Positions 2,529-39,568 of a DNA stretch of 46,375 nt are shown piece by piece. A program made the translations under genes and the position numbers. Every line of letters begins with the position of its first letter. Within the stretch, counting starts at the first letter, position 1. The notes beneath the pieces were generated by a model. That model did not search any database, was not told where the DNA came from, and worked only from the letters and a program-made list of their open reading frames with translations. This stretch comes from a virus, in IMG/VR virus record IMGVR_UViG_3300031392_000003, positions 1 through 46,375 of that record; one strand, written 5' to 3'.

Positions 2529-3065
2529 ATGACTCACATTAGCTCACTAACGTCTGGTATTTACTCGTACATGGACGTTTTTACAGGCGATGTTAGCGCT
2601 ATCGACGGCGACTCTGTCGCTGGAGACTATGCAGCTCTATTCGCAGGCGGAACACCGGGAACTGACGTTCTACGCGTACCTTCGCCACGAGAATTCCCAG
2701 CCGTAGGTAACGCCGCTAACATTACTAACGTTCCTGTATTTGGCCAACAACAGTCCTCACAGGTATCAGGACAATCTGATGCTCCGTCGATGGACGTTAC
2801 AATCAACTACGTGCCTAGCGATATTCTAGAATTTGAAGATATCAAAGGTCAAGAAGTTGCTTTCCGCTTTATGTTTGCTGCTGCGGCGGTAACAGAAGCT
2901 GATGGTACAGCTGCTACGCTGGATGTTGATAACACAGAGTTCTACTGGAAAGGCAAGATCGAAGCCATCCAGCCGACTCCGTCTCTGACTGACTCAAACA
3001 CCGCCGTTATTAACATTTCGGTTCAGGTCGACTTTGTTGGTCCGTCGACTATCGCAGCTACCTAA
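2529..3065 (+). CDS. Putative major tail (tube) protein
   Basis: A 178-residue protein with TAAGGAG 9 bases before the ATG. The composition is Ala/Gly/Thr/Val rich with alternating strand segments, ending NTAVINISVQVDFVGPS, which resembles siphovirus tube subunits. It lies directly before the tail chaperone genes and the tape measure gene, the standard order for a tube protein. No C-terminal Ig-like extension is present. A phage promoter begins 20 bases after its stop. Confidence 0.7.
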   Translation: MTHISSLTSGIYSYMDVFTGDVSAIDGDSVAGDYAALFAGGTPGTDVLRVPSPREFPAVGNAANITNVPVFGQQQSSQVSGQSDAPSMDVTINYVPSDILEFEDIKGQEVAFRFMFAAAAVTEADGTAATLDVDNTEFYWKGKIEAIQPTPSLTDSNTAVINISVQVDFVGPSTIAAT

Positions 3066-3085: not shown

Positions 3086-3105
3086 AATTAGGTGACGTTA
3101 AAGAG
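3086..3105 (+). promoter_or_regulatory. Phage single-subunit RNA polymerase promoter 1
   Basis: The 17-base core TTAGGTGACGTTAAAGA occurs here and at two other places, each in or beside an intergenic gap on the + strand. It closely matches the published SP6 promoter (ATTTAGGTGACACTATAGAAG), sharing TTAGGTGAC and the AnAGA around the start site. By that alignment the start G is base 3103. This copy drives the tail chaperones and tape measure. The phage-encoded T7-type polymerase at 18361-21277 is the likely reader. Confidence 0.85.
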
Positions 3106-3128
3106 GAGGCCCCTTCGGGGGTCTCTTC
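3103..3128 (+). promoter_or_regulatory. 5' mRNA stem-loop starting at the promoter's +1
   Basis: The arms at 3103-3113 and 3118-3128 form an 11-bp stem (two G-U pairs) around a TTCG tetraloop. It begins exactly at the predicted first transcribed base. There is no T-run after it, so it does not look like a simple intrinsic terminator. A 5' hairpin could protect the late mRNA from decay. Partial termination of upstream transcription is the alternative. Confidence 0.65.
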
Positions 3129-3147: not shown

Positions 3148-3378
3148 ATGAACGAAAAAAAGTTTAGATTCAGTAAAAACTACGTCCTAGATGTAACTGC
3201 TAAACATATGATTCGTGCTGTTGATATCAGTCTAGATAAGACCGCCCAGCGTATGGAACAGTTGACCCCAGAAGAAGGTCAGGAAGTATTAGAAACAATT
3301 AGTGAGTTGTTCAAACTCCGTAAGTTTTTAAAAGAGTATAGAGAAAGGTTCACCAAAGATGAAACATCTAGTTGGTAA
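3148..3378 (+). CDS. Small hypothetical protein before the tail chaperones
   Basis: A 76-residue protein with a GAGGAAG site, the first gene after phage promoter 1. It is helical and charged (TPEEGQEVLETISELFKLRKFLKEYRERF). It overlaps the chaperone G gene by 20 bases. Many siphoviruses have a small helical gene at this place, but I do not recognise its family. A tail-assembly role is an inference from position. Confidence 0.6.
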   Translation: MNEKKFRFSKNYVLDVTAKHMIRAVDISLDKTAQRMEQLTPEEGQEVLETISELFKLRKFLKEYRERFTKDETSSW

Positions 3379-3718
3379 GGAAGTCACTAAAGAAGTTGAC
3401 TTTATGGAAGAAAAAGTGAGCATTCGTAAACTGACGTTCGGTCAGATTATTGAACTACAGAAACAGATTAAAGCAGTCCAGACTAAGCCAAAGTCTAAGA
3501 AGAACGAGGAAGTGGATAGTATGGAGCTGCTTCGTATTGTTATTGGTGCTGGTGTAATTGGCGCGCAAGAGCTAAGTGTTGAAGACTACCAGTCTTTCCC
3601 ACCTGATGAACTTAATAACCTAGCAACAGAAGTCCTTAACTACATCGGTCTAAGTACTGATGCTGTAGAGGTTGACCCTGATAGTGATGTTGATGGAGAA
3701 ACCCCTATGGGAAACTAA
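3359..3718 (+). CDS. Tail assembly chaperone G (unshifted product)
   Basis: A 119-residue protein between the tube and tape measure genes, the standard site of the lambda G-type chaperone. It is helical (LTFGQIIELQKQIKAVQ; ELNNLATEVLNYIGLS) with an acidic tail. The last codons read ATG GGA AAC TAA and contain a slippery heptamer, so a fraction of ribosomes should continue into the -1 frame. It probably coats the tape measure protein during tail assembly. Confidence 0.8.
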   Translation: MKHLVGKEVTKEVDFMEEKVSIRKLTFGQIIELQKQIKAVQTKPKSKKNEEVDSMELLRIVIGAGVIGAQELSVEDYQSFPPDELNNLATEVLNYIGLSTDAVEVDPDSDVDGETPMGN

Positions 3719-9910: not shown

Positions 9911-9925
9911 GATAATCCAAACTAA

Positions 9926-9952
9926 GGTCATCTCTCACTTCGAGGGGTGGCC
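9926..9952 (+). terminator. Terminator-like hairpin after the tape measure gene
   Basis: GGTCATCTCTC (9926-9936) pairs with GAGGGGTGGCC (9942-9952) around a five-base loop, an 11-bp stem with G-U pairs, followed by TATTTTAT. A near-identical hairpin ends the rIIB gene at 39594-39620. It closes the structural operon and lies over any start codon upstream of 9980. Confidence 0.75.
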
Positions 9953-9979
9953 TATTTTATCAGAAAGGTTTTGTATAAT

Positions 9980-18360: not shown

Positions 18361-21277
18361 GTGGAAGCATCAGAAACTCTAGAAGCCCTCGAACAAGACC
18401 TAAGTTACCGTCTTGAAAATCTTGACACCAGAAATGGTGCCTACTGGCTCACGGAAGAGAAACTATCTGCGGAAAACCTTATCGCCTTCAGTTACCCCCA
18501 TGTTCTGAGAGCAATTGAGCGAAGAGGAACGCTGGTAGAGCTATCTGCTTCTATTGGTCGTAGGCTAAGACAAAAGAACAAGCTACCACAAGACTCTATT
18601 ATGGAAATCCATGCTGGGTGGTTTATTGTAATAAGTTTCATAGACATTGGCTTGATTTCTTACACAAAAGAAAAGACAAATCGAAATACAAAGGTCTCTA
18701 AGCACAGAGCCTATGTTATTGTAGCAGAAGATTGGAAACGTCTCAAGACTCTGATTGATACAATCGATATGGACAATTGTGACATGTTTCCTGTCAATAT
18801 CGTCCCAGCACCTTGGGTCAAGGGATATCCATATCATTCAACTACTGGCACACCAATTGTTAAAAGAGGGTCTGCCATGCAACTTGACCCATTTAAAAGA
18901 CCCAGCGAAGAAATGGAAGTGCTTTTCTATGTTCTAAATAAACTAAGCAGCACTGGATGGAGGATCAACAAGGATGTCTTTGCAGTCTATGAACACTTCA
19001 TGGAAAAATCCGAAGACTATAGTGAGTCTCCGTTCAAATATTATAGAGAGGTCGACAACAAGAAAAAACGGTCTATGCTAATAGAAGCGGAAGCCGTCCG
19101 AAAGCTTGCAAATCTCCACCTTGATAAAACTTTCTACCACTTATATAACTTCGACTTCCGTTAATCCTATGGCGGAAGTAAAACTCTGTGAATTCGGTAA
19201 ACATCCAATGTGACAATACCGAGCCAAGCTAATTTTTAATTAGAAGGTGTAGAGACTATTATGTAGAGCCAAGTGGCTCGAAGCGCAGAGGCCTAGTATA
19301 GGTATGATATAGTCCGATCTTCTTAGTAATAAGGAGCAGAACATGCGAATATGGAAAGATATTAAAGGCTTTGAAACCGTATACCAAGTATCTAATAAAG
19401 GAGAAGTACGTCGTTTAGATACTCTTGTTCCCTTCAGTGGAACTATGGCGTTAAGAAAAGGTAGATATCTCAAGCCTACTAAAAACTCTAAAGGTTACCT
19501 GACTTTAGTTCTATGTTATAAATCAAAGAGATGCACAAAAACAGTTCATCAGCTTGTTGCGGATAGTTTTATCTTAAAGGTGCCTAGCTTGACACAGGTT
19601 AACCACATAGACGGAAACCCACTCAACAACAGCCTTTGTAATCTAGAAAGATGTACTCCTTCTCACAATCAACTTCATTCTTACAGGATGAATGGAAGGA
19701 AAAACCCAATGAGGAAACTTACAGAGCTAGAAGTGATAGAAGTAAAGAAGAGGCCTAATATGAAGAGGAAAGCTCTTGCAAAGAAGCTCAATGTCACGGA
19801 GTGGTGCATAAAACAAATAAGGGCTGGAAAAACTTGGTCGCATGTTACGGTAGAAGACTAACGATCTTCTGCGAACAATATGGGTAGGATTTACCCCAAC
19901 ACGGCATTCTTACATGAACAGTCTTCAGATAACGCTCGCGGTATCCTAATGCTGGACGAACCAGTCCCGCTAGGTCCTAACGGCCAAAAGTGGTTATACA
20001 CCTATGCTGCAAATGTATGGGGAGAAGACAAGATACCGCTAAAAGAAAGAGTTGAATGGGTAGAAGATAACTTGCATTATATTAAAGATTACGCGCGCGA
20101 TCCGCTTTCTCATCGTGGATGGATGAAAGCTGATAAACCTTTCTCTTTCTTAGCCTCTTGCTTTGAAATTGAAGCCTTGACTGCGTGGGAAAAGCGAGGT
20201 GAAGAATCAGAAGATTTCCCGTCTTGCCTACCGGTCTTCATAGACGGTAGTAACAATGGTGTTCAACACCTTGCTGCTATGTCCCGTGATGAAGAGGTTG
20301 CGCCTCTTGTCAATCTTGTACCTCAAGCTACCCCCGGCGATGTATACATGTTCATTGCTGATAAGGTATGGTCTAGGTTAGAAGACATGCGTAGCAAACT
20401 ACCTAAGAAAGTAGTAAATAGATTTAGTGCTGTGCAAAGTAAGGGTATAGAGCTGCAAAAGAAGTACTCTGAAGCTCCTCTTGGGTCAGATCGTAAGGAA
20501 ATTGCCTATAAGAATCTTATGAAATGGAAACAGAGTAATAGGGATCTTAGAGAAAAGCTATTCCCTGTCTATTGGCTCAAATTAACTAAGAAACAGAGGA
20601 GATCAAGCGTCAAGAGAAATACTATGACACTCGGTTATGGCGGTACCCCCTACGGTATGGGTCAACAAGTAATTGAGGACACCAGAGGTATTAGCGATTA
20701 TCTGAGAGACAAGGACTATCTCTGGGGTATAATGTTAGGAGACTTAGTATATCGTACCTGTTATGATGAACTAAAAGGCCCAGCTAGAATGCTCAGGCTG
20801 TTTGAAACCCTTGCGGAGAGAGCAAATGAAGAAAATAAGCCGCTCACATGGCATACACCAACTACTGGGTTTCCAGTGGTACAAGAGTATCGAAAAGCAA
20901 AGGCTGTACGCGTACGCCTACAACATGGACCCAAAACTCTGTGGGTCCAAATTCAAGTTTGGGAAGAGAGTACTCTTAACGAAAGCAAGCAAAAAACAGG
21001 GGCTGCACCAAACATCGTACATTCGTTGGATGCTGCACACTTGGCCCATACTGTACATGATTGCTCATTTTCAGTTGTTGTGGTACATGACTCTTTCGGT
21101 TGTCATGCCGCCCATATGGAAGATCTCTTCTACAGGGTACGCAAAACGTTTAGACGGCTACATGAAATAGATCCTCTTAGAGAGATCTTAGAAGAACTTA
21201 ACTCTTTAGATCTAATGCCAGAAAGAGGCAAACTAGATCTTAGCAAAATAGAGGAATCAGACTATGCCTTTGCATAA
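18361..21277 (+). CDS. T7-type single-subunit RNA polymerase, split by a group I intron
   Basis: The spliced product is join(18361..19161,19883..21277), 731 residues, from GTG with AGGAGG 4 bases upstream. Exon 1 ends in YHLYNFDFR and exon 2 begins GRIYP, restoring the conserved DxxGR motif (T7 YNMDWRGRVYA). Catalytic residues are present: Asp in PVFIDGSNNGVQHL (T7 D537), Lys and Tyr in KRNTMTLGYG (T7 K631, Y639), His-Asp in VVVHDSFG (T7 H811, D812), and the end ESDYAFA (T7 ESDFAFA). It is shorter than T7 RNAP (883), mainly in the N-terminal part and specificity-loop region. Unspliced mRNA would stop at TAA 19162-19164 and give a dead fragment. The likely targets are the three promoters at 3086, 21963 and 31527. 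Confidence 0.95.
19162..19882 (+). mobile_element. Group I self-splicing intron in the RNA polymerase gene
   Basis: The 721-base intron follows U 19161 and ends in G 19882. P1 forms between exon ACTTCCGT (19154-19161) and the guide GCGGAAGT (19172-19179), with the required U-G pair at the splice site. Core elements are visible: P AATTCGGTAAAC (19191-19202), Q CAATACCGAGCCAAGC (19214-19229), R GGTGTAGAGACTA (19246-19258) and S GATATAGTCC (19306-19315). P4 pairs CGGTA with TACCG, and P7 pairs ACTAT with ATAGT. An HNH endonuclease gene fills the 3' half. Splicing joins CGT to GGT in frame. Confidence 0.92.
19343..19861 (+). CDS. Intron-encoded NUMOD4-HNH homing endonuclease
   Basis: A 172-residue protein with AAGGAG 6 bases before the ATG. 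It begins with a NUMOD4 motif (RIWKDIKGFETVYQVSNKGE), followed by an HNH_3 core (KTVHQLVADSF, QVNHIDGNPLNNSLCNLE) and a C-terminal helix-turn-helix-like unit (KRKALAKKLNVTEWCIKQIR). It should cut intron-less polymerase alleles and promote intron homing. It is flanked by the 9-base direct repeat CGATCTTCT (19315-19323 and 19862-19870). Confidence 0.9.
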   Translation: MRIWKDIKGFETVYQVSNKGEVRRLDTLVPFSGTMALRKGRYLKPTKNSKGYLTLVLCYKSKRCTKTVHQLVADSFILKVPSLTQVNHIDGNPLNNSLCNLERCTPSHNQLHSYRMNGRKNPMRKLTELEVIEVKKRPNMKRKALAKKLNVTEWCIKQIRAGKTWSHVTVED

Positions 21278-21962: not shown

Positions 21963-21980
21963 ATTAGGTGACGTTAAAGA
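21963..21980 (+). promoter_or_regulatory. Phage RNA polymerase promoter 2
   Basis: The core TTAGGTGACGTTAAAGA at 21964-21980 is the same as at 3088 and 31530, with start G at 21979. It stands before the SSB and replication genes. The early transcript contains GCGC/GCGC (21989-22001) and GAGAGC/GCTCTC (22009-22031) hairpins, again placing structure near the 5' end. Confidence 0.85.
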
Positions 21981-22053
21981 AGAGGACAGCGCTAAGTGCG
22001 CACTATAAGAGAGCAAAATTTATAAGCTCTCGAAACACAGGATGTAATAAAAC

Positions 22054-22701
22054 ATGGCAATTATCAAAGATGCTACCATTTTCTGGTTGAAGGCTGACCC
22101 TAACAACCCTGTCAAAATCGGAGACGATAACGATGGTAATCCTCGTATGGGTTGGGAAGTCGAACTGCGAACAGAGGACAAGGCAGAGGCCAATAAGTGG
22201 CGTAAAGAGTATAACGCTACTAAACATGTAAAAGCTGTTCGAGAAGACAAAGACGATGAAGAGTCGACTATTCTTTTCTATCGTTGGAAGCTTCGTCGTA
22301 ACCAGTTTAAGGCAAACGGCCAAGAATCCAGCCCGCCTGAGATCCTTCGCGGTGATACAGGAGAGGCCTTCAGCGATCCTAAGATCGTTGGTAATGGATC
22401 GATTGGTGATGTTCGTATCTTCACACGAGAATACACGCACGATGGTGTGACTAAACACGTTCATTACTTTCTTGGTCTCTCTGTTAAAGAGCTTCACCGC
22501 TATGTACCTCGGCCTAAAGAAGAGTTTGAGCACGTCAACTCTATGAAGGTTGTTGATCCAGATGGTGACGAAGATGGTGATGTTGGTTCTAAGGCACTAG
22601 AGAAAGCTGACGCCCAACCAAAGAAGGGTCGAGCAGCACCAAAGAGTAAAAAGACTACACCAAAAGATCTTGATGACGAAATCCCTTTTGACCAAGGGTG
22701 A
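22054..22701 (+). CDS. Single-stranded DNA-binding protein, T7 gp2.5-like
   Basis: A 215-residue protein, the first gene after phage promoter 2. Residues 1-155 look like an OB-fold (ATIFWLKADPNNPVKIG; VRIFTREYTHDGV), followed by a charged linker with basic patches (KKGRAAPKSKK) and the acidic-aromatic tail DLDDEIPFDQG. Such a tail is the partner-docking end of phage and bacterial SSBs. It should coat single strands and recruit the DNA polymerase and primase-helicase encoded downstream. Confidence 0.85.
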   Translation: MAIIKDATIFWLKADPNNPVKIGDDNDGNPRMGWEVELRTEDKAEANKWRKEYNATKHVKAVREDKDDEESTILFYRWKLRRNQFKANGQESSPPEILRGDTGEAFSDPKIVGNGSIGDVRIFTREYTHDGVTKHVHYFLGLSVKELHRYVPRPKEEFEHVNSMKVVDPDGDEDGDVGSKALEKADAQPKKGRAAPKSKKTTPKDLDDEIPFDQG

Positions 22702-23378: not shown

Positions 23379-23671
23379 TATCTTTGAAACTAAAAAAAAA
23401 AGCGCCGTTTGAAAAGCAATTAGCAGATGTTAAAGATGAAGAGGTCTGTGTTGGTTGGTGGGCCCCCCACGTATTCAGTGTCAAGAGGTGGAGAGATGTA
23501 GTTGCCCGAAACGGAACAGAGAAAGAACAAACTTCAGCGTTGATAGGACTTAGAGGAAAGATGTATGACACAGAGAGACGCGCAAACTTTTATAACCACC
23601 ACAAAAAAGAGGCAATCCCAGTGTACGCTAAGAAAACAGACCTTCTCCAGAGTGAGAAGGAACAGTCTTAA
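23375..23671 (+). CDS. Hypothetical protein, 98 residues
   Basis: It overlaps the previous stop (ATGATAT). It is a basic protein with VCVGWWAPHVFSVKRWRDVV in the middle and a polar helical C-terminus. No motif is recognised. The spacing indicates co-translation with its neighbours. Confidence 0.6.
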   Translation: MISLKLKKKAPFEKQLADVKDEEVCVGWWAPHVFSVKRWRDVVARNGTEKEQTSALIGLRGKMYDTERRANFYNHHKKEAIPVYAKKTDLLQSEKEQS

Positions 23672-28633: not shown

Positions 28634-31351
28634 ATGCCCAAGTATAATCAGATTTGCCCCGCTCATGGGGGTAACAGCTTCACAGTCTTTGATGATGGTG
28701 GTGGTTACTGTCATAATGCAGAATGTGGAGCAAAGTTTAAATCAGGGTCGTTTGATCCCGATACTGGAGAGGAAATGGGTACCGGAGAATATAAAACAAA
28801 GGAGGAATACTCTAAAAAACCAAAGGGTTGGTCTGATCGTAAAGACCCTAAGTTTGCCAAAGCTGTATTTGATGCCTATGACTCGGATAAATACGAGTTG
28901 AAGAAAATATCTCTACGAACAATGGAGCTATACAACTGTAAAGTATCCTACTTTGATGATGGAGACCAAGAAGCAGTTTATTATGCCTATAACATTGATG
29001 ATGGTATTCCAAAAGGCTATAAGAAGAGAGTTCTACCTAAGGATTTCTCTGAAGGCACAGTAGGTGAAATGAAAGGCTTGTTTGGTTGGGGTCTGTTCCC
29101 AAACAAGGGTAAGAGGGTAGTAATCACCGAAGGTGAAGACGACTGTATGAAAGTACAAGATGGCAACTACGGCATCTATAAAAGACACTACCCTGTTTAC
29201 TCTATTCAAAGTTCCGTTGCAACAAAAGACTTAATTGACGTAAGAGAGGAACTCAGGAAGTTTGATGAGATTGTTATCTGGTTTGATAATGACGGACCCG
29301 GTCAAAAAGCAACTAAAGAAGCCGCTAAGATACTTGGCTACGACAAGGTTAAAGTTGTTCAGACAGTTGATGGTGTAAAGGATGCTTGCGACTATGCAAA
29401 AGAGTATGGCATAGACCACGTAGTTTGGGCTATTGCTGATGCTAGAGAGTATTCTCCTGCTGCTATTCTTAACGGTAAAGACCTCTGGGAAAGGCTAGAG
29501 GCATATAACAATAAACAGTCTGTACCTTACCCAGACTATATGGAGGGTCTAAACGAAAAGCTTAGAGGTATACGAACTGGTGAAATTACCCTTTGGACCT
29601 CTGGCACAGGCTCTGGGAAGTCTACCCTAATGAGAGAGATCGTTTACCACCTACAGCAGGGTGTCTCAGAGGAGACCGGAGAGGCATGGGTTCACTCCTC
29701 TAGTAGGGTAGGTATCATCAGCCTAGAGGAGTCACCAGAGGAGTACACTAAGAAGCTCTCTGGTATGGCTATCAACAAGAACCCCTCTTACGAAGATGTC
29801 CCTATGGAAAACCTGAGAGAAGGCTTTGATAAGGTCTTCGCAGATGGAGATATTCTGGTGTTGGACCATCAAGGCTCTATCAGCGACGGGTCTATTATGG
29901 ACCACCTAGAGTTCATGTGTCTGAAAGGTTGTAAGTATCTTTTTATCGATCACATTACAATTCTTGTTTCTGAAGGTTCAGACGGGCTTACTGGTAATGA
30001 AGCCATTGACAAGATTATGAACAGTCTCTTGCATCTAGCTAAGAAGTATGATGTGTGGATTGGTCTAATCTCTCACCTTCGTAAAAGAAACAACGACCAG
30101 AAAACTTTTGAACAAGGTCGTATTCCGTCCCTAGACGACATCAAAGGTTGTTTAGCTTATGACACAGAAGTATTAAGCTATAAGGGTAGAAAAGTAAAAG
30201 TACAAGACATCAAAGTTGGTGACAAGCTCATGGGTCCAGACTCATTACCAAGAACAGTTATGAGCCTAAAAACCGGTGAACAACGTATGTATAAAGTATC
30301 TAACAAAACATCAAAAGATTATTTTATCTGTAATGAGAACCATGTATTGACTCTATCAAGAAATAATAGAATGTTTGATATGAAAGTTAAAGACTTTTTA
30401 GATAAAAGTAAAAGCTTTCAGGTTAGGTGTAAACAACACTTCTCGGAAGGGTATGAACTAGATAATAAGGATCTTATTATACCCCCTTACTCTTTAGGGG
30501 TTTGGCTTGGAGACGGTTCTAAGTCTGCTTTCAGGATCATGGATGCTTCTGACTTAGGTATTGCAAAAAGGGTAAGCAAAGAATTGAATGCAACTTTGAA
30601 GACACCATCTAATAGAAAGAAAGAATATTTCAACTTTGTAACTACTACAAAAGGTGATTTACTCAATAAATTAAAGCATATTGGTGTTCTAAATAACAAA
30701 CACATTCCTCCTGACTATAAGTTTAACTCTAGGGAAAATAGAATCCAGTTAATTGCCGGGTTAATAGATACAGACGGAACTTACTCAAAGAAAGACAGGT
30801 GTTTTTATTTTTACCAGAAAGATAAAACAATGGCGGAAGATGTAAAGGACATTGCAAGGTCTTTAGGTTTTTATAGTACTTGTCGCCCTCAAAAGATAAC
30901 TTCAACAAGCTATTCTTCATATAACTCTACTATTTACCAAGTAACGATTTCAGGTGCAATAGATAAGATACCTTGTCAAAAGTCATCAAGAGTACCACCT
31001 AGTAGGAAACGTAATGACTGTCTAAAAAGAGGAATTATCATTGAGAAACTTAATGAAGATAGGTACTATGGCTTTACCTTAGACGGAGACGGTAGGTTCT
31101 TATTGGGTAACCATATAATCACCCACAATTCTGGTTCTATCAAACAGATTTCTTTCGACGTCATTGGCTTTGCAAGAAACCAAGAGTCAGACGACGATAA
31201 AGAGCGAAACACTATGATGCTAAGTGTACTCAAGTGTCGCTTCACTGGCCAAACCGGCCCTGCTGGTAAGCTATATTACAATCATAAAACTGGAAGGATG
31301 CAGGCTGATACAGACAAGCTCATGAGAGTAGAAGAAATGAAAGAAATCTAA
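28634..31351 (+). CDS. Primase-helicase, T7 gp4-like, with intein
   Basis: A 905-residue precursor giving a 578-residue mature protein. The N-terminus is a primase zinc ribbon (Cys8, His11, Cys26, Cys31). A TOPRIM domain follows (RVVITEGEDDCMKVQDGN; EIVIWFDNDGPGQKA). The RecA-type helicase has Walker A SGTGSGKST (about 322-331), Walker B CKYLFIDHITILV and GLISHLRKR. An intein (residues 506-832) breaks the motif DIKG/SGSIKQ, equivalent to T7 DLRGSGALRQLSD. The protein should unwind the fork and lay down primers with the SSB and family A polymerase. Confidence 0.95.
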   Translation: MPKYNQICPAHGGNSFTVFDDGGGYCHNAECGAKFKSGSFDPDTGEEMGTGEYKTKEEYSKKPKGWSDRKDPKFAKAVFDAYDSDKYELKKISLRTMELYNCKVSYFDDGDQEAVYYAYNIDDGIPKGYKKRVLPKDFSEGTVGEMKGLFGWGLFPNKGKRVVITEGEDDCMKVQDGNYGIYKRHYPVYSIQSSVATKDLIDVREELRKFDEIVIWFDNDGPGQKATKEAAKILGYDKVKVVQTVDGVKDACDYAKEYGIDHVVWAIADAREYSPAAILNGKDLWERLEAYNNKQSVPYPDYMEGLNEKLRGIRTGEITLWTSGTGSGKSTLMREIVYHLQQGVSEETGEAWVHSSSRVGIISLEESPEEYTKKLSGMAINKNPSYEDVPMENLREGFDKVFADGDILVLDHQGSISDGSIMDHLEFMCLKGCKYLFIDHITILVSEGSDGLTGNEAIDKIMNSLLHLAKKYDVWIGLISHLRKRNNDQKTFEQGRIPSLDDIKGCLAYDTEVLSYKGRKVKVQDIKVGDKLMGPDSLPRTVMSLKTGEQRMYKVSNKTSKDYFICNENHVLTLSRNNRMFDMKVKDFLDKSKSFQVRCKQHFSEGYELDNKDLIIPPYSLGVWLGDGSKSAFRIMDASDLGIAKRVSKELNATLKTPSNRKKEYFNFVTTTKGDLLNKLKHIGVLNNKHIPPDYKFNSRENRIQLIAGLIDTDGTYSKKDRCFYFYQKDKTMAEDVKDIARSLGFYSTCRPQKITSTSYSSYNSTIYQVTISGAIDKIPCQKSSRVPPSRKRNDCLKRGIIIEKLNEDRYYGFTLDGDGRFLLGNHIITHNSGSIKQISFDVIGFARNQESDDDKERNTMMLSVLKCRFTGQTGPAGKLYYNHKTGRMQADTDKLMRVEEMKEI
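30149..31129 (+). mobile_element. Intein with LAGLIDADG homing endonuclease
   Basis: This is a 327-residue in-frame insert in the helicase. It starts with Cys (CLAYDTEVLSYKGRKVKVQD, block A), has block B NENHVLTL and ends RFLLGNHIITHN before extein Ser. Two LAGLIDADG motifs (SLGVWLGDGS and IAGLIDTDG) form a homing endonuclease. All residues for splicing (Cys1, His-Asn end, Ser+1) are present. Removal restores the helicase motif DIKGSGSIKQ. Confidence 0.93.
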
Positions 31352-31370: not shown

Positions 31371-31556
31371 GTAAGTGATAATCTGAGGGCGTTACTTAAC
31401 TTCTTTGGTGGCAACATTGAAGCTATAAGGAGCTTTGTAAATTGGCACTGGGTCATGGGGACTTACCCGGCAGAAACAGCACGAGAAGTGCTAAAGGAGC
31501 TAGATAAGTATGAGCAATCAAAGAAAAATTTAGGTGACGTTAAAGATGAAGAATAA
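31371..31556 (+). other. Open frame of 61 codons without a normal start codon
   Basis: The frame reads (V)SDNLRALLNFFGGNIEAIRS, then FVNWHWVMGTYPAETAREVL, ending KDEE. It looks like a real helical protein, with AAAAGGA 8 bases before GTA 31371, exactly where ATG would be expected. The only in-frame ATG (31455) would leave 33 residues. Either GTA is a sequencing error or mutation of ATG, or the gene is decaying. Phage promoter 3 lies within its last codons. Confidence 0.4.
31527..31546 (+). promoter_or_regulatory. Phage RNA polymerase promoter 3 with downstream hairpin
   Basis: AATTTAGGTGACGTTAAAGA is the copy nearest to SP6 on its 5' side (ATTTAGGTGAC). The start G is 31545. Bases 31564-31571 and 31580-31587 form an 8-bp stem (GGGGCAGG/CCTGCCTC) about 20 bases into the transcript. 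It stands before a small membrane gene and the RNR gene. Confidence 0.85.
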
Positions 31557-31628
31557 CTACGGTGGGGCAGGGTAAGGAACCTGCCTCATTAAATAACAAA
31601 TTAGTCTAATAACTATCTAGGAGATAAG

Positions 31629-32563: not shown

Positions 32564-34666
32564 ATGAATTCATCCGAACTACCTACTTCTTACCAAAAGT
32601 TTATTGCCCTTTCTCGTTATGCTCGATGGATTGAGTTCCTCCAAAGGCGAGAAAACTACCATGAAACGGTAGATAGATACATTGATAATGTTGTCACCAG
32701 TGTTATGAGGGGTCACATTGGCGAATTAAGCCAAGAGGACCTTGATGTGATCTCAGAACTACGACAAGGTATTTATGATCTTGAAGCCATGCCTTCTATG
32801 AGGGCAATGATGACAGCAGGACCTGCTCTAGATCGAGATAACACGGCTGGCTTTAATTGTGCTTTTCTTGTTGTTGACAACATCCATTCCTTTAGAGAAA
32901 CTATGATTATCTTGTCAAACGGTACAGGTGTTGGTTTCTCTGTAGAAAATAAGTTTGTGTGTGACCTTCCTGAAGTTGCAGAGACTATGACAAAAGTCCC
33001 TACACAAATTATTGTAGAAGACTTCAAAGAAAGTTGGGCGGATGCTTTGCATCAGCTTATATCCCTACTCTTTTCTGGCATTGAGCCTAGCTGGGACACA
33101 ACTCGTGTCCGTAAAGCTGGTACCCCACTAAAAACTTTTGGTGGACGTGCTAGTGGACCTGAACCGCTAGAAGATCTTTTTCATTTTGTTGTTAAAGTGT
33201 TTCGTGAGGCGAGAGGTCGCCAACTTAAAACACAAGAGTGTCATGACATAATGTGCAAGATTGCTCAAGTTATTGTTGTTGGTGGAGTCCGTCGATCCGC
33301 AATGATCTCGCTTTCCGACCTTGATGACGCTGAGCTTCGCATTGCTAAAGAGGGTGAATGGTATATTGTACATCCTGAACGTGCTCTGAGCAATAACTCA
33401 GTTGCATATGACCATAAGCCAAACGAAGCCACTTTCTGGGAAGAATGGCAGGCCTTGATTAAATCTGGTTCTGGTGAGAGGGGTATCTTCAACAGAGAAG
33501 CGGCACAAAGGATTATTAAAAAACACGGTCGTCGTATGACCCATGCTACAAGTGCTAATGACCCAAGTCGTTGGGAAAAGATTAACTTTGGCACAAATCC
33601 GTGCAGTGAAATAATCCTTCGTCCTTATCAGTTCTGTAACTTAACAGAGGCTGTTATACGGCCCAAAGATACCGTTGAAGATATTAAAGAGAAGATCCGC
33701 AAAGCGGTAATTCTTGGTACTATCCAATCTACTCTAACCCATTTCCCTAATTTACGTAGTATCTGGAAAAAGAATACTGAAGAAGAAAGACTCCTAGGCG
33801 TGTCTCTTACTGGTATTATGGATAACCCTCTAATGACTCGTAAGAACTCTGGTCTGGAGGCAACCCTTGATTACTTCAGGAAGTATGCTGTAGAGGTAAA
33901 CCGTATTTGGGCAAATAAGCTAGGCATTAATCAGTCTGTTGCTATTACTTGTGTAAAGCCTAGTGGTACAGTGTCTCAAATGGTAGATAGTGCCTCTGGC
34001 ATCCATACTCGTTTTGCTCCATACTACCTTCGTACAGTACGAAATGATAACAAAGACCCTGTTACCCTTCTTATGAAGGATCAAGGAGTGTACTGGGAGC
34101 CTAATGTTATGGAGTTTTTCAGTAAAGGTGGGCTTGCTATCGTGGAAGACTATGAAAATCTTTCTAAAGACGAAGAAGGGAAAATCAATAACAACAGCTA
34201 TGTCTTTGATATTAAGACTAAAACTCTTTTGAAAGAATATCAAGTAGTTGGAGAAGAAGAGTATAGCAGCACTGTATTCTATTTTCCAATGAAAGCGCCA
34301 GACAAAGCCGTCTTTAGGCATGATATAAATGCTATCGATCAGCTTAAGACTTGGCTTGTTTACCAAGACCACTGGTGTGAGCACAAACCATCTGTGACAA
34401 TTTCAGTTGAAGATCACGAATGGGAAGAAGTAGGAAAATTTGTCTATGAGCACTTTGACAAGATGTCTGGTGTTTCTTTCTTGCCTTACGATGGCGGGAC
34501 TTATCAGCAAGCTCCTTATGCTGAAATCTCTGAAGAAGAATACAGAGAATGGAGCCGTGAACGTAGTGTAGAGGTTGATTGGTCTCTACTTTCATTTTAT
34601 GAAAGCACCGACATGACAAAAGGTAGTCAAGAGCTAGCTTGCGTCGCTGGAGGTTGCGAAATCTAA
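32564..34666 (+). CDS. nrdJ: Class II (B12-dependent) ribonucleoside-triphosphate reductase
   Basis: A 700-residue protein with TAGGAGGA upstream. It matches the monomeric RTPR type. Cys99 lies in AGFNCAFL, the radical site NPCSEI holds Asn345, Cys347 and Glu349, the second active-site Cys is 358 (QFCNL), and the C-terminal redox pair is Cys693/Cys698 (ACVAGGCEI). The 11-residue spacing between Cys347 and Cys358 equals that in Lactobacillus RTPR (408/419). It makes dNTPs with adenosylcobalamin, so the host must supply B12. A glutaredoxin gene downstream may feed electrons. Confidence 0.95.
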   Translation: MNSSELPTSYQKFIALSRYARWIEFLQRRENYHETVDRYIDNVVTSVMRGHIGELSQEDLDVISELRQGIYDLEAMPSMRAMMTAGPALDRDNTAGFNCAFLVVDNIHSFRETMIILSNGTGVGFSVENKFVCDLPEVAETMTKVPTQIIVEDFKESWADALHQLISLLFSGIEPSWDTTRVRKAGTPLKTFGGRASGPEPLEDLFHFVVKVFREARGRQLKTQECHDIMCKIAQVIVVGGVRRSAMISLSDLDDAELRIAKEGEWYIVHPERALSNNSVAYDHKPNEATFWEEWQALIKSGSGERGIFNREAAQRIIKKHGRRMTHATSANDPSRWEKINFGTNPCSEIILRPYQFCNLTEAVIRPKDTVEDIKEKIRKAVILGTIQSTLTHFPNLRSIWKKNTEEERLLGVSLTGIMDNPLMTRKNSGLEATLDYFRKYAVEVNRIWANKLGINQSVAITCVKPSGTVSQMVDSASGIHTRFAPYYLRTVRNDNKDPVTLLMKDQGVYWEPNVMEFFSKGGLAIVEDYENLSKDEEGKINNNSYVFDIKTKTLLKEYQVVGEEEYSSTVFYFPMKAPDKAVFRHDINAIDQLKTWLVYQDHWCEHKPSVTISVEDHEWEEVGKFVYEHFDKMSGVSFLPYDGGTYQQAPYAEISEEEYREWSRERSVEVDWSLLSFYESTDMTKGSQELACVAGGCEI

Positions 34667-36573: not shown

Positions 36574-38774
36574 AGTTGATGCAAGAAGAACGTGATGTAC
36601 GTACGAGCGTGTCTCAAGAAGGTCGTTTCAAAATTGCTGAGAATGGAAAGGCCTTTAAGGCTCTTATTGACGGTCTATACTCCCGCAAGGCGGAATCAAT
36701 TACTAGGGAGATCTGGTCTAACGCTTACGACGCTCATACAGAACGTGGTAACAAGGACCGCCCCTTTTCTGTTACGTTTCCTAGTTTGTTCAACAACGAG
36801 TTTAGGGTGCGTGATTATGGCTATGGATTGTCTCATGAAGATGTCATGGGACTGTATACAACTGTGTTCCAATCTACAAAAGAGGATACAAACTCTCAAA
36901 CGGGCAAGTGGGGTCTTGGTTCTAAATCGCCTTTCTCCTACACTGACACATACGGGGTTACATCTTGGCATGATGGAAAGCGTAGGGTCTATTCAGCAGT
37001 AATTGGTCGAGACGGTGTACCAACCATTAACTTGATGCACGAGGAAGACTCTAATGATGAAACTGGTCTAGAGGTAACTTTCCCTGTTGATGCTAGAGAC
37101 GTTCAGTCTTTCCGGGATGCTGCTGAGTGGGTTTCTCTCGCCTATGACCCTATCCCAGAGGGGTTTGAGCCTAAAAAGCGTATCAAATATGACATTGATA
37201 AAAAAGGTCTTTACAAGATAGGCAATTTCTGTGATAAAAACGGAAGCCCCGTAGGGATAGGGTATAACGAAACCATTGTTTTTGCTAAAATGGGTACCGT
37301 TCTTTATCCTATCAAGCCTAACGATTATGTTTCTTCTTCCGAAATTATTACTCTAACAAAACTTTGTGGTCGTGATGACATTATTGTCCTACCCTTTGAA
37401 ATGGGGGAACTTGAGATAACTCTGTCTCGGGAGGAGCTATCTTTCGGTAAAGATGAACCTACTGCTGACTCTATTAAAAAGAGAATTAATGAAGTATCAG
37501 ATGTAATCTTAGAGGATACTCTTGAAGTAGTAAACAAATTTAAAACGCTTGAAGAAGCTAACAAATACTTTCGGAGTAGAGTTTCACATAACTATTTTAA
37601 GCAACAATACTTCACTTCTGCCAGTTCAATAGTAAAATTTAGTACTAACTCAAACCTAGAAAAATATGACCCAAAGAAACCGCAATATGGGAATGCTACT
37701 GTTTACAAAGAAGGTAGGTTTACTTCTGTTTGGGGCAAATTACTCAATTCCCATATTCTAACCGAGCTAGACCAATTTTCTTTTGCTTGGATAGATCATA
37801 AAGCCACAGCCAACGCAAAAATTACTAAAACAAATCATTTTACTGATTCAATTTACCGGCTTACCACAGATCCAATTCTTATTATATCCGATCAAAGGAA
37901 GGGAGCGCCCCAAGCAAAGCATAATGCCAGACGTGTACATAAGTACCTAACGGAAAAAGGTTTTAGTCGAGCTTCCTATGTTGAAATAACGGACGACAAC
38001 GAGAAAGAAGCTCTGGATCAGATAAAGACCTATAAGTCTAGGCGTGCAAAAGAGAATAGGGGAACTATTTTTACCCACGAAATAGACTACACCCATCCTA
38101 AAAAGGGGAGGTCTCGTGTAAAACTCAGGGAACTGAAAGGGAATGGCAGCTTCCGTGGTTACGATACTACACTTGAACCTGAAGAATTTGATGAGGGTGG
38201 TTACTATCTTCGCATGTTTAGAAACGATATCCAAGACGGGGCTTTCAAGGAAAATTTTCTTCTCCCTAACTGGAAAAGTATTCTTGGGCTAAGTCCTGAT
38301 GATAAAGTTGTTATTGTTCCTAAAACTATGTGGAGTCGATTTGATAAAGACCCAGATTGGATTAATCTTGATGTCACTGCTAAAGAGGTAATTAATAGTG
38401 GAGAATACAAACGTCTTGTTAATCTGAGGCATTGCATAACTGCAAAAAATCGTATTAGTAATATCATAAATTCCTCTTACAATTCTTACACACTTCCGTT
38501 TTGGCCAAGCAGGCATATAAATGCTATAAGGCCAATCTATGAAAAACTTGAGAAAATTACCGCATCTATAACGAGGGATGATCTACACAAAATTAACTCA
38601 GTTAGGGCTGATGTTAAAGAGTCAGGACATCTTGTTTCTTACGATCGTATCATTGAGGCAATCTCAAAAGAACGATCTTCCCTGTTTCCACTCCTATCTA
38701 AACTGAACGGATGGAATAAAGATACTGTTAAGCAGTATGAAGACCTAGTCATGAACCAAAAAGGAAAGTTTTAA
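36570..38774 (+). CDS. rIIA: rIIA-like protein with GHKL ATPase domain
   Basis: A 734-residue protein. The N-terminal ATP-binding GHKL fold has EIWSNAYDAH (N box), RVRDYGYGLSHEDV (G1) and KWGLGSKSPF (G2). The middle and C-terminal parts resemble phage rIIA proteins and it is followed at once by rIIB. In T4, rIIA/rIIB are membrane-associated and protect infection against the Rex system of a lambda prophage. In other phages they are thought to counter host or prophage exclusion. Expression is coupled to rIIB (TAATG). Confidence 0.88.
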   Translation: MKLMQEERDVRTSVSQEGRFKIAENGKAFKALIDGLYSRKAESITREIWSNAYDAHTERGNKDRPFSVTFPSLFNNEFRVRDYGYGLSHEDVMGLYTTVFQSTKEDTNSQTGKWGLGSKSPFSYTDTYGVTSWHDGKRRVYSAVIGRDGVPTINLMHEEDSNDETGLEVTFPVDARDVQSFRDAAEWVSLAYDPIPEGFEPKKRIKYDIDKKGLYKIGNFCDKNGSPVGIGYNETIVFAKMGTVLYPIKPNDYVSSSEIITLTKLCGRDDIIVLPFEMGELEITLSREELSFGKDEPTADSIKKRINEVSDVILEDTLEVVNKFKTLEEANKYFRSRVSHNYFKQQYFTSASSIVKFSTNSNLEKYDPKKPQYGNATVYKEGRFTSVWGKLLNSHILTELDQFSFAWIDHKATANAKITKTNHFTDSIYRLTTDPILIISDQRKGAPQAKHNARRVHKYLTEKGFSRASYVEITDDNEKEALDQIKTYKSRRAKENRGTIFTHEIDYTHPKKGRSRVKLRELKGNGSFRGYDTTLEPEEFDEGGYYLRMFRNDIQDGAFKENFLLPNWKSILGLSPDDKVVIVPKTMWSRFDKDPDWINLDVTAKEVINSGEYKRLVNLRHCITAKNRISNIINSSYNSYTLPFWPSRHINAIRPIYEKLEKITASITRDDLHKINSVRADVKESGHLVSYDRIIEAISKERSSLFPLLSKLNGWNKDTVKQYEDLVMNQKGKF

Positions 38775-39568
38775 TGCAATACCCCTATACCTACACCCCG
38801 AAAGCAATCTCTATCTTCTTTAACGGCAAGTCGCATAACATCCCAAGTGACTCAAAGAACTTTGATGAGCTTTGTAAACACCTTCTTTACGAGCCTCATG
38901 ACCCTGAACTTATCACCAGTTTGATTGACCGTGGTCTTGCAATGTCTAAGTTTGCAGAAGGTTCTGACATTAATGTTGACCTTGAAGCACAAACTATCAC
39001 CTACAAGGGTGAAGAGCTTCATGGTGTTCTCGTAGATAAGATGCTTGATCTTGCTAGCGAAGACGCTGACATTGAGCCCTTGGCTAACTTCCTTCGCAAC
39101 ATTGACCAGAATCCTAGCTACAACTCTCGTCAGTCTCTGTTTGCATTCCTTGAGCACTGGATGGCTCCTATCACAGAAGATGGGCACTTTGTGGCCTTTA
39201 AGAACGTTCGCGAGAACTACCATGACATCCACTCAAATACATTTGACAATAGTCCGGGTAAGGTGTGCGAAGTTTCTCGACATCAGGTTGATGACAACAT
39301 CAATAACACCTGCTCGCAGGGTCTCCACGTTGCAGCTACCTCTTACCTGAGTCATTTCTACTCTAACGGTAGTCGTACTGTTGCAGTTAAGGTAAACCCG
39401 GCAGACGTGGTTGCTGTGCCGCCGGATTACAACAATGCCAAGATGCGTTGCTGCCGGTACGAGGTTCTTGAAGAAGTTGAGCCTAATAGTCTTGAAGAAC
39501 GCTCTACAAGGGTCGTTTATGATCGTGATTACGATCAGGCCCCGAGTCATCGGGCGTTCCGAGTCTAA
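38774..39568 (+). CDS. rIIB: rIIB-like protein
   Basis: A 264-residue protein overlapping rIIA by one base. It has FLEHWMAPITEDGHFVAFKN, then CSQGLHVAATSYLSHF and VKVNPADVVAVPPDYNNAKM, a set of motifs typical of rIIB proteins. It should act with rIIA. A terminator-like hairpin follows. Confidence 0.88.
   Translation: MQYPYTYTPKAISIFFNGKSHNIPSDSKNFDELCKHLLYEPHDPELITSLIDRGLAMSKFAEGSDINVDLEAQTITYKGEELHGVLVDKMLDLASEDADIEPLANFLRNIDQNPSYNSRQSLFAFLEHWMAPITEDGHFVAFKNVRENYHDIHSNTFDNSPGKVCEVSRHQVDDNINNTCSQGLHVAATSYLSHFYSNGSRTVAVKVNPADVVAVPPDYNNAKMRCCRYEVLEEVEPNSLEERSTRVVYDRDYDQAPSHRAFRV

What the first reader, a model, noticed from the sequence alone, without database searches (positions are those of the whole stretch)
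3086..3128. SP6-like phage promoter whose transcript starts directly with an 11-bp TTCG hairpin
The sequence shows the core TTAGGTGACGTTAAAGA three times (3088, 21964, 31530). It is close to the known SP6 promoter. At this copy the predicted +1 base is the first base of a perfect stem-loop, so the mRNA would begin inside a hairpin. The other two copies have hairpins within 10-20 bases of +1. A fixed promoter-plus-5'-hairpin design in a long-tailed phage would be a neat mRNA-stability device.
Basis: partly seen in the sequence, partly recalled or inferred. Interest (0 to 1): 0.8.

Follow-up and report, generated by a model that had tools for sequence, protein, structure and literature searches.

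The report
SP6-like phage promoter on conserved hairpin
A long-tailed phage has a start signal for its own RNA polymerase sitting exactly against an RNA hairpin, and related phages suggest that the hairpin is the conserved part (a likely message-stability device beside the tail-tube gene) while the start signal comes and goes.

Summary
TTAGGTGACGTTAAAGA occurs three times (chance about 0.2), and at 3103 the predicted +1 is the first base of an 11-bp stem with a UUCG loop. The promoter reading is well supported. The virus encodes a T7-type RNA polymerase, interrupted by a group I intron with an HNH gene. Relatives, including the dU-DNA roseophages DSS3_VP1/PM1, carry the same motif family. Across relatives the -11 base follows the polymerase residue at the T7-N748 position: R/K with G, E with C, L with T. 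SP6 also has R there, yet the polymerase is no closer to SP6 (32%) than to T7 (34%), so the SP6 likeness looks convergent.

The "fixed promoter-plus-hairpin device" is only partly right. At this site, between the major tail protein and tail-chaperone genes, 65 of 68 distinct relatives keep a strong sense-strand hairpin, but only 15 or 16 have the promoter. The hairpin mostly lacks the U-tract that the family's tape-measure terminators carry, and it folds far better as sense RNA than antisense. Best reading: a conserved intercistronic mRNA-stability hairpin on which a promoter has been placed, nearly flush, so that it also caps the new transcript. T7 phi10 is the known precedent. No function was tested.

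The parts
3088..3104 (+). SP6-like phage promoter core, predicted +1 = G3103
   Evidence: same position relative to the tail genes as the DSS3_VP1 motif at 29396
3103..3128 (+). 11-bp UUCG hairpin flush with +1; member of a hairpin conserved at this intergenic site
   Evidence: (z -3.36)
2529..3065 (+). major tail protein gene (upstream cistron)
   Evidence: phrog_158, weak, E 0.0036; 65% identity to the DSS3_VP1 protein
3148..3378 (+). first gene behind the hairpin; small protein of unknown family
   Evidence: 37% identity to DSS3_VP1 29453-29683; no Pfam or PHROG match
3359..3718 (+). probable tail assembly chaperone gene
   Evidence: phrog_508, weak, E 0.0039; 42% to DSS3_VP1
21964..21980 (+). 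second promoter copy, predicted +1 = 21979
   Evidence: DSS3_VP1 has a motif (46551) upstream of the homologous gene
21989..22031 (+). two short stems at +11 and +31 of the second promoter
   Evidence: z -3.14
31530..31546 (+). third promoter copy, predicted +1 = 31545
31561..31590 (+). 11-bp stem, 8-nt loop, at +17 of the third promoter
   Evidence: z -5.07
18361..19164 (+). N-terminal exon ORF of the T7-type RNA polymerase (its last codons run into the intron)
   Evidence: 63% to DSS3_VP1 RNAP
19152..19879 (+). group I intron (Rfam match 19152-19336) with NUMOD4/HNH ORF 19343-19861; the 3' end is inferred from the start of the second exon ORF
19880..21277 (+). C-terminal exon of the RNA polymerase, with the specificity loop
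9925..9953 (+). terminator-like hairpin behind the tape measure gene, used as internal contrast (has a T-run)

Best explanation
The 17-mer is a promoter of the phage's own T7-type RNA polymerase. Supported here by comparison: motif family, strand, position, and a base-residue match at -11. The hairpin at 3103-3128 belongs to a more widely conserved element: a sense-strand RNA hairpin between the major tail protein gene and the next gene, in promoterless relatives about 11 nt behind the stop codon and about 20 nt before the next start codon. Inferred mechanism: on read-through transcripts the hairpin blocks 3'-to-5' decay and protects the abundant tail-tube message from the fate of the chaperone/tape-measure message downstream. 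In lineages that carry the promoter, transcripts start at or within about 3 nt of the stem, so the same hairpin also gives the new mRNA a structured 5' end that slows 5'-end-dependent decay. The first role is inferred from conservation and the usual lack of a U-tract. The second is inferred from register and from the T7 gene 10 precedent.
For: Promoter: 3 exact copies against 0.19 expected. In 49 records, 25 of the 25 chosen for holding the 17-mer and 6 of the 24 chosen through the polymerase have the motif with at most 2 mismatches; the backward control matched once in all. Seven copies in DSS3_VP1, all on its gene strand. Polymerase-promoter match: residue 748 R/K with G at -11, E with C (26 of 27 motifs), L with T (2 of 2). 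Hairpin: 65 of 68 distinct orthologous sites against shuffle mean 2.2, max 5; present in 15 of 15 with a promoter at up to 2 mismatches and 49 of 51 without. Sense 65 versus antisense 6 of 68. Covariation score 1.02 against 0.37 shuffled, 85 two-sided cells against 23 (0 of 500 shuffles). Not a terminator: T-run of 4 or more in the next 8 bases in 2 of 65, against 10 of 11 strong tape-measure hairpins. Register: stem starts at 0 to +3 in 15 of 15. Precedents: T7 phi10 and phi3.8, SP6 22415 at +3; Mertens 1996 title, seen in the reference list of PMC6146998.
Against: No transcript data exist here: +1, RNA half-lives and polymerase binding are all inferred. One more site, L153, has its lineage's promoter variant (CCAGGGGACGTTAAAGA, 3 mismatches to the consensus used) and no strong stem, so counting it gives 15 of 16. 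The 15 include 7 near-identical window-clade sites. The flush register may partly reflect lack of space, since in several relatives the promoter begins at the stop codon. Strong hairpins behind stop codons are not rare in these genomes (52 of 393). The hairpin could instead separate translation of the two genes or bind a protein. Allowing T-runs that begin inside the last 4 bases of the stem raises the count to 7 of 65. The covariation count uses stems chosen for pairing, and the simple count of pairs with two-sided change (9) is reached by 89 of 500 shuffles. In the window/DSS3 promoter group the +1 stem excess is not significant, and SP6 has 0 of 13 motif sites with a gapless stem exactly at +1. 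The -11 match rests on few independent changes: the E enzymes look like one clade, the R loci are one near-identical clade, and two of the three K loci are copies of DSS3_VP1.
Confidence: 0.62

Rival explanations
1. One reading: a dedicated promoter-plus-5'-hairpin cassette, in which the hairpin exists to stabilise the mRNA that starts there.
For: Stem within 3 nt of +1 in 15 of 15 promoter-bearing sites. Exact +1 stems in 17 of 67 AT-rich-clade promoters against shuffle mean 1.2. T7 phi10 and phi3.8 begin the same way.
Against: 49 of 51 promoterless orthologous sites keep the hairpin. Two of the three window promoters lack a +1 stem. 50 of 67 AT-rich-clade promoters have no such +1 stem, and the window/DSS3 group does not beat shuffles.
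Confidence: 0.15
2. The hairpin is a partial transcription terminator that lowers expression of the chaperone/tape-measure genes after the major tail gene, and the promoter restarts transcription.
For: Position behind an abundant structural gene, as T7 Tphi lies behind gene 10. Sense-strand conservation.
Against: T-run of 4 or more within the next 8 bases in 2 of 65, although the same phage group puts such runs behind the tape-measure hairpin (10 of 11 strong ones).
Confidence: 0.12
3. The hairpin is a translation insulator: it keeps ribosomes ending on the major tail gene from re-initiating on the next gene and keeps the next Shine-Dalgarno free.
For: Narrow spacing on both sides: stop to stem 10.8 +/- 3.1 nt (49 sites), stem to ATG 20.3 +/- 5.3 nt (48 sites) without promoter.
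Against: No direct evidence; equally compatible with the stability reading.
Confidence: 0.12
4. The 17-mer is not a promoter but another repeated signal, such as a replication or packaging site or a protein-binding site.
For: No biochemical test; some DSS3_VP1 copies lie inside genes.
Against: Same strand as genes, many copies upstream of genes, 14 of 17 match to SP6, and the -11 base follows the polymerase specificity residue.
Confidence: 0.05

Closest known systems
Phage T7 promoter phi10 with the gene 10 leader stem-loop
   Same: Single-subunit RNA polymerase promoter; transcript begins at +1 with an 8-bp stem; major structural gene region. A literature title states that a 5' or a 3' terminal stem-loop stabilises T7 gene 10 mRNA (Mertens 1996, seen only in the reference list of PMC6146998).
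   Different: In T7 the hairpin sits before the abundant gene; here it sits behind the major tail gene and is found without a promoter in 49 of 51 such relatives.
Phage SP6 promoters
   Same: TTAGGTGAC half identical; 14 of 17 bases; both polymerases have R at the T7-N748 position.
   Different: The -6, -5 and -2 bases differ (G, T and A here; A, C and T in SP6). Polymerase is 32% identical to SP6 and 34% to T7 in the aligned C-terminal part.
Naomviridae phages DSS3_VP1 and DSS3_PM1
   Same: Homologous gene order, 64% RNAP identity, promoter plus flush UUCG hairpin at the same place behind the major tail gene.
   Different: Window RNAP gene has a group I intron; no match listed to the VP1 dCMP deaminase; the VP1 promoter variants ATAGGTTA and ATAGGGTG were not found in the window.
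Intercistronic hairpins of the Rhodobacter puf operon mRNA
   Same: Hairpins inside a polycistronic message giving its segments different decay rates (passage and cited title seen in PMC7509114).
   Different: Bacterial operon studied by experiment; here inferred from sequence only.

Membership tests
T7-type (single-subunit) phage RNA polymerase | RNA_pol domain with catalytic residues of T7 RNAP | tested here: met
   Pfam PF00940 E 4e-82; the alignment to T7 keeps the DGS, KR..MTL.YG, VHS.D and HDSFG stretches (their catalytic roles are recalled)
T7-type (single-subunit) phage RNA polymerase | Recognises a promoter of about 17 bp ending at a purine +1 | tested here: inconclusive
   Motif family and residue-base covariation; no biochemistry
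SP6 promoter family | SP6 consensus -15..+2 | tested here: not met
   3 of 17 bases differ from the SP6 core; it resembles the family, but the likely cognate polymerase is no closer to SP6 than to T7
Naomviridae (family of DSS3_VP1/PM1) | Homologous structural and replication genes in the same order | tested here: met
   30 window ORF rows match DSS3_VP1 in collinear order, of which two are nested in the capsid gene and two are the RNAP exons
Naomviridae (family of DSS3_VP1/PM1) | dU-DNA genome | tested here: inconclusive
   No match listed to the VP1 dCMP deaminase in this probably incomplete record; base composition of the DNA not testable
Intrinsic terminator | GC-rich stem followed by a U-tract | tested here: not met
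   T-run of 4 or more within the next 8 bases in 2 of 65 sites; the window site is followed by AATCAAGT
5'-terminal mRNA stabiliser stem-loop | Stem within a few nt of the mapped 5' end, longer half-life | not testable with these tools
   Register fits if +1 is 3103; 5' ends and half-lives unmeasured

The most novel reading that the evidence does not exclude
One RNA hairpin serves two messages: it is the 3' guard of the major tail message and, where a promoter has settled on it, the 5' cap of the chaperone/tape-measure message. The hairpin came first, and phage promoters were gained or lost on it repeatedly (7 changes on the best major-tail-protein tree; strongly supported branches force at least 3), within 3 nt of flush register. 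In parallel, the wild polymerases of this group re-code the -11 contact (R/K-G, E-C, L-T), one branch converging on the SP6 solution.
Probability: 0.4. Interest if true: 0.6.

Novelty: new variant of a known kind. Interest (0 to 1): 0.48.

Why it matters
It gives this family of long-tailed phages, which includes the dU-DNA roseophages, a testable transcription system: polymerase, promoter code and start sites. The natural match between one polymerase residue and the -11 base bears on how phage polymerases change promoters, and offers new specificity variants. The tail-site hairpin is a natural experiment for separating an mRNA-stability hairpin from its promoter, and may help set the ratio of tail-tube to tail-assembly proteins.

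Tried and rejected
Terminator reading: rejected as main function because 2 of 65 sites have a T-run of 4 or more in the next 8 bases (1 directly behind the stem; 7 if the run may begin in the last 4 stem bases), while 10 of 11 strong tape-measure hairpins have one. DNA cruciform or protein-dyad reading: disfavoured because the pairing needs G-U pairs of the sense strand (sense 65 versus antisense 6 of 68). N4-type split polymerase: considered because the RNAP lies in two ORFs; rejected because DSS3_VP1 has one 732-aa ORF matching both parts and a group I intron lies between them. Close kinship with SP6: rejected (32% against 34% to T7).

A +1-stem excess in the window/DSS3 promoters did not beat shuffles. 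A look for promoter motifs in the more distant polymerase clades (748 = W or V) gave nothing convincing. The three orthologous sites without a strong gapless stem are L153, L333 and L368. By eye, L368 has a hairpin with one mismatch, L333 has other sequence behind the tail gene, and L153, which carries its lineage's promoter variant, has only a weak long-loop fold. The window-clade motif TTAGCAGACGTTAAAGA (4 of 11 motifs in the R group) has C at -11; it is the sister-contig version of the in-gene copy at 23420, and I treat it as not a promoter. Of 7 promoterless tail-site contigs whose other held pieces I scanned, 3 have the motif elsewhere and 4 do not.

In print: searches listed no paper whose title or opening lines describe these promoters or this hairpin; I did not open most of the listed papers. 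The 2021 family description (recalled, DOI tried) is not held, so it may mention promoters. PMC12697855 has 0 occurrences of 'promoter' and of 'RNA polymerase'.

Full report
WHAT WAS CLAIMED AND WHETHER IT IS THERE. The 17-mer TTAGGTGACGTTAAAGA is exact at 3088, 21964 and 31530, all on the plus strand. A three-mismatch copy lies at 23420 inside an ORF. Shuffles give 0.19 matches on average with up to three mismatches. At 3088 the predicted +1 (G3103) is the first base of an 11-bp stem closed by UUCG (two G-U pairs; z -3.36). At the other two copies the first stems start at +11 and +17 (z -3.14 and -5.07).

WHAT THE VIRUS IS. The window is a 46,375-base virus record, probably incomplete. Thirty of its ORF rows match the roseophage DSS3_VP1 in order, two of them nested in the capsid gene and two being the RNAP exons; the DSS3_VP1 record is placed in the Naomviridae. 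DSS3_VP1 and PM1 carry dU-DNA (PMC12697855, passages). I could not show that the window virus does: no match to the VP1 dCMP deaminase was listed. It has a tape measure gene, a family A DNA polymerase, and a T7-type RNA polymerase in two ORFs separated by a group I intron with a NUMOD4/HNH ORF. The two ORFs (267 and 465 aa) together match the single 732-aa VP1 enzyme.

THE PROMOTER. An exact scan of IMG/VR found 31 stretches with the 17-mer. I then searched 49 records: 25 chosen through the 17-mer (all match by selection) and 24 through the polymerase, of which 6 have the motif with at most two mismatches and 18 do not. The pattern read backwards matched once in all. DSS3_VP1 has seven copies, all on its gene strand; some lie inside genes. 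Variants seen are [AT]TAGGTGACGTTAAAGA, ATAGG(TTA/GTG)CGTTAAAGA in the DSS3 phages, [AT]TA[CG]CTGACGTTAAAGA in a large AT-rich clade, CCAGGGGACGTTAAAGA in one record and ATAGTGGACGTTAAAGA in another.

THE POLYMERASE MATCHES THE PROMOTER. N748 of T7 RNA polymerase contacts base pairs -10 and -11 (PMC5937735, passage), and N748D appears in T7 enzymes evolved onto the T3 promoter (PMC4633624, passage). I aligned 61 polymerases of the group (window and VP1 included) with T7 and SP6 and listed motifs with positions -12 to -8 left free. Motifs were found in 30 of 61 loci. Residue R: 7 G and 4 C at -11, all from the near-identical window clade; the four C are one in-gene site in sister contigs. Residue K: 16 of 16 G, from three loci; two of these are copies of DSS3_VP1, so three motifs are counted twice. 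Residue E: 26 of 27 C, one T. Residue L: 2 of 2 T, one locus. Residue W: two lone A motifs, likely chance. These loci were fetched by polymerase sequence, not by promoter, but the number of independent changes is small. SP6 also has R at this position; overall the window enzyme is 32% identical to SP6 and 34% to T7, so the SP6-like promoter looks like convergence on one contact.

THE HAIRPIN IS MORE WIDESPREAD THAN THE PROMOTER. Together with earlier loci that gave 117 loci with the gene and 68 distinct sites. Strong sense stems (at least 7 bp, -9 kcal/mol or better) occur in 65 of 68, against a shuffle mean of 2.2 and maximum of 5. They occur in 15 of 15 sites with the promoter (at most 2 mismatches), 1 of 2 with 3-4 mismatches and 49 of 51 without it. 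The intermediate miss, L153, carries its lineage's CCAGGGG promoter, so the promoter count may be put at 15 of 16. In 393 stop-codon contexts of eight family genomes or large parts of them, this site and near-copies included, 52 have such a stem. On the tail-protein tree of 62 rows, promoter presence needs 7 changes (bootstrap 6-7; strongly supported branches force at least 3). Of 7 contigs without the promoter at this site whose other held pieces I scanned, 3 have it elsewhere (G038, 3300025655_000128, 3300035232_000964).

IT IS AN RNA ELEMENT AND PROBABLY NOT A TERMINATOR. The sense strand folds (65 of 68) and the antisense does not (6 of 68); 121 of 674 pairs are G-U. In 33 trimmed distinct hairpins the covariation score is 1.02 against 0.37 shuffled, with 85 two-sided cells against 23. 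Those stems were chosen for pairing, so the 100% pairing is by construction, and the plain count of pairs with two-sided change (9 of 9) is reached by 89 of 500 shuffles. A T-run of four or more lies within the next 8 bases in 2 of 65 (7 of 65 if it may begin in the last four stem bases). By contrast, 11 of 17 tape-measure sites have strong stems, and 10 of those 11 have such a run within the next 8 bases.

REGISTER WITH THE PROMOTER. Where both are present, the stem starts at +1 in 9, +2 in 2, +3 in 3 and one base before +1 in 1 of 15 sites, seven of them near-identical. In the window the promoter core begins 22 bases behind the stop codon, so the flush register there is not forced by lack of space. 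Across 87 non-redundant promoters, exact +1 stems of at least 4 Watson-Crick pairs exceed shuffles in the AT-rich clade (17 of 67 against 1.2; many look like one orthologous site behind the polymerase gene), but not in the window/DSS3 group (1 of 20 against 2.1; with G-U and at least 5 pairs, 8 of 20 against 4.5).

COMPARISON WITH KNOWN SYSTEMS. Of 17 annotated T7 promoters, phi2.5, phi3.8 and phi10 start with a gapless stem of at least 5 bp at +1. Of 13 SP6 motif sites none does, but one has a -13 kcal/mol hairpin at +3 before the capsid gene. The T7 gene 10 leader stem-loop is a known mRNA stabiliser, at either the 5' or the 3' end (reference title seen in PMC6146998), and hairpins inside the puf operon message set segment decay rates (PMC7509114, passage and cited title). 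The device therefore works like known ones. What I did not find described is its conservation at the tail-gene boundary, its independence of the promoter, and the -11 pattern in this group.

MECHANISM AND CONFIDENCE. Supported by comparison: promoter family, polymerase match, hairpin conservation, sense-strand pairing, usual lack of a U-tract. Inferred: transcript starts, protection of the upstream message from 3' decay, 5' capping of the new transcript. I give 0.62 to the combined reading and about 0.9 to the promoter part alone.

Noticed in passing
window 18361-21277: The T7-type RNA polymerase gene is interrupted by a group I intron (Rfam 19152-19336) carrying a NUMOD4/HNH ORF (19343-19861); DSS3_VP1 lacks the interruption.
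   Followed up: partly
window 28634-31351: The primase-helicase ORF matches Hint and LAGLIDADG homing endonuclease families, so it probably holds an intein.
   Followed up: no
window 9925-9953; DSS3_VP1 and relatives behind the tape measure gene: Terminator-like hairpin, often with a GGTCA..TGGCC stem, and a T-run behind the tape measure gene; 11 of 17 distinct relatives have a strong stem. A similar GGTCATCCC..GGGGTGGCC stem lies behind window 38774-39568.
   Followed up: partly
AT-rich relatives, promoter just behind the RNA polymerase gene (e.g. L056 11575, L042 11586): Transcripts would begin GAACAAT..GTTC or GAACATTTGTTC: tiny hairpins exactly at +1 with varied sequence.
   Followed up: partly
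window 22054-22701 behind promoter 21964: Homologue (46%) of DSS3_VP1 46619-47248, which also has a promoter motif just upstream; no Pfam match in either; function unknown.
   Followed up: partly
L333 (3300009505_000750), behind the major tail gene: A near relative of the window clade (71% tail protein) has about 400 bases of other sequence where the promoter and hairpin would be.
   Followed up: no
window 32564-34666: Matches to ribonucleotide reductase barrel and B12-dependent RNR families, while DSS3_VP1 is annotated with separate alpha and beta subunits.
   Followed up: no
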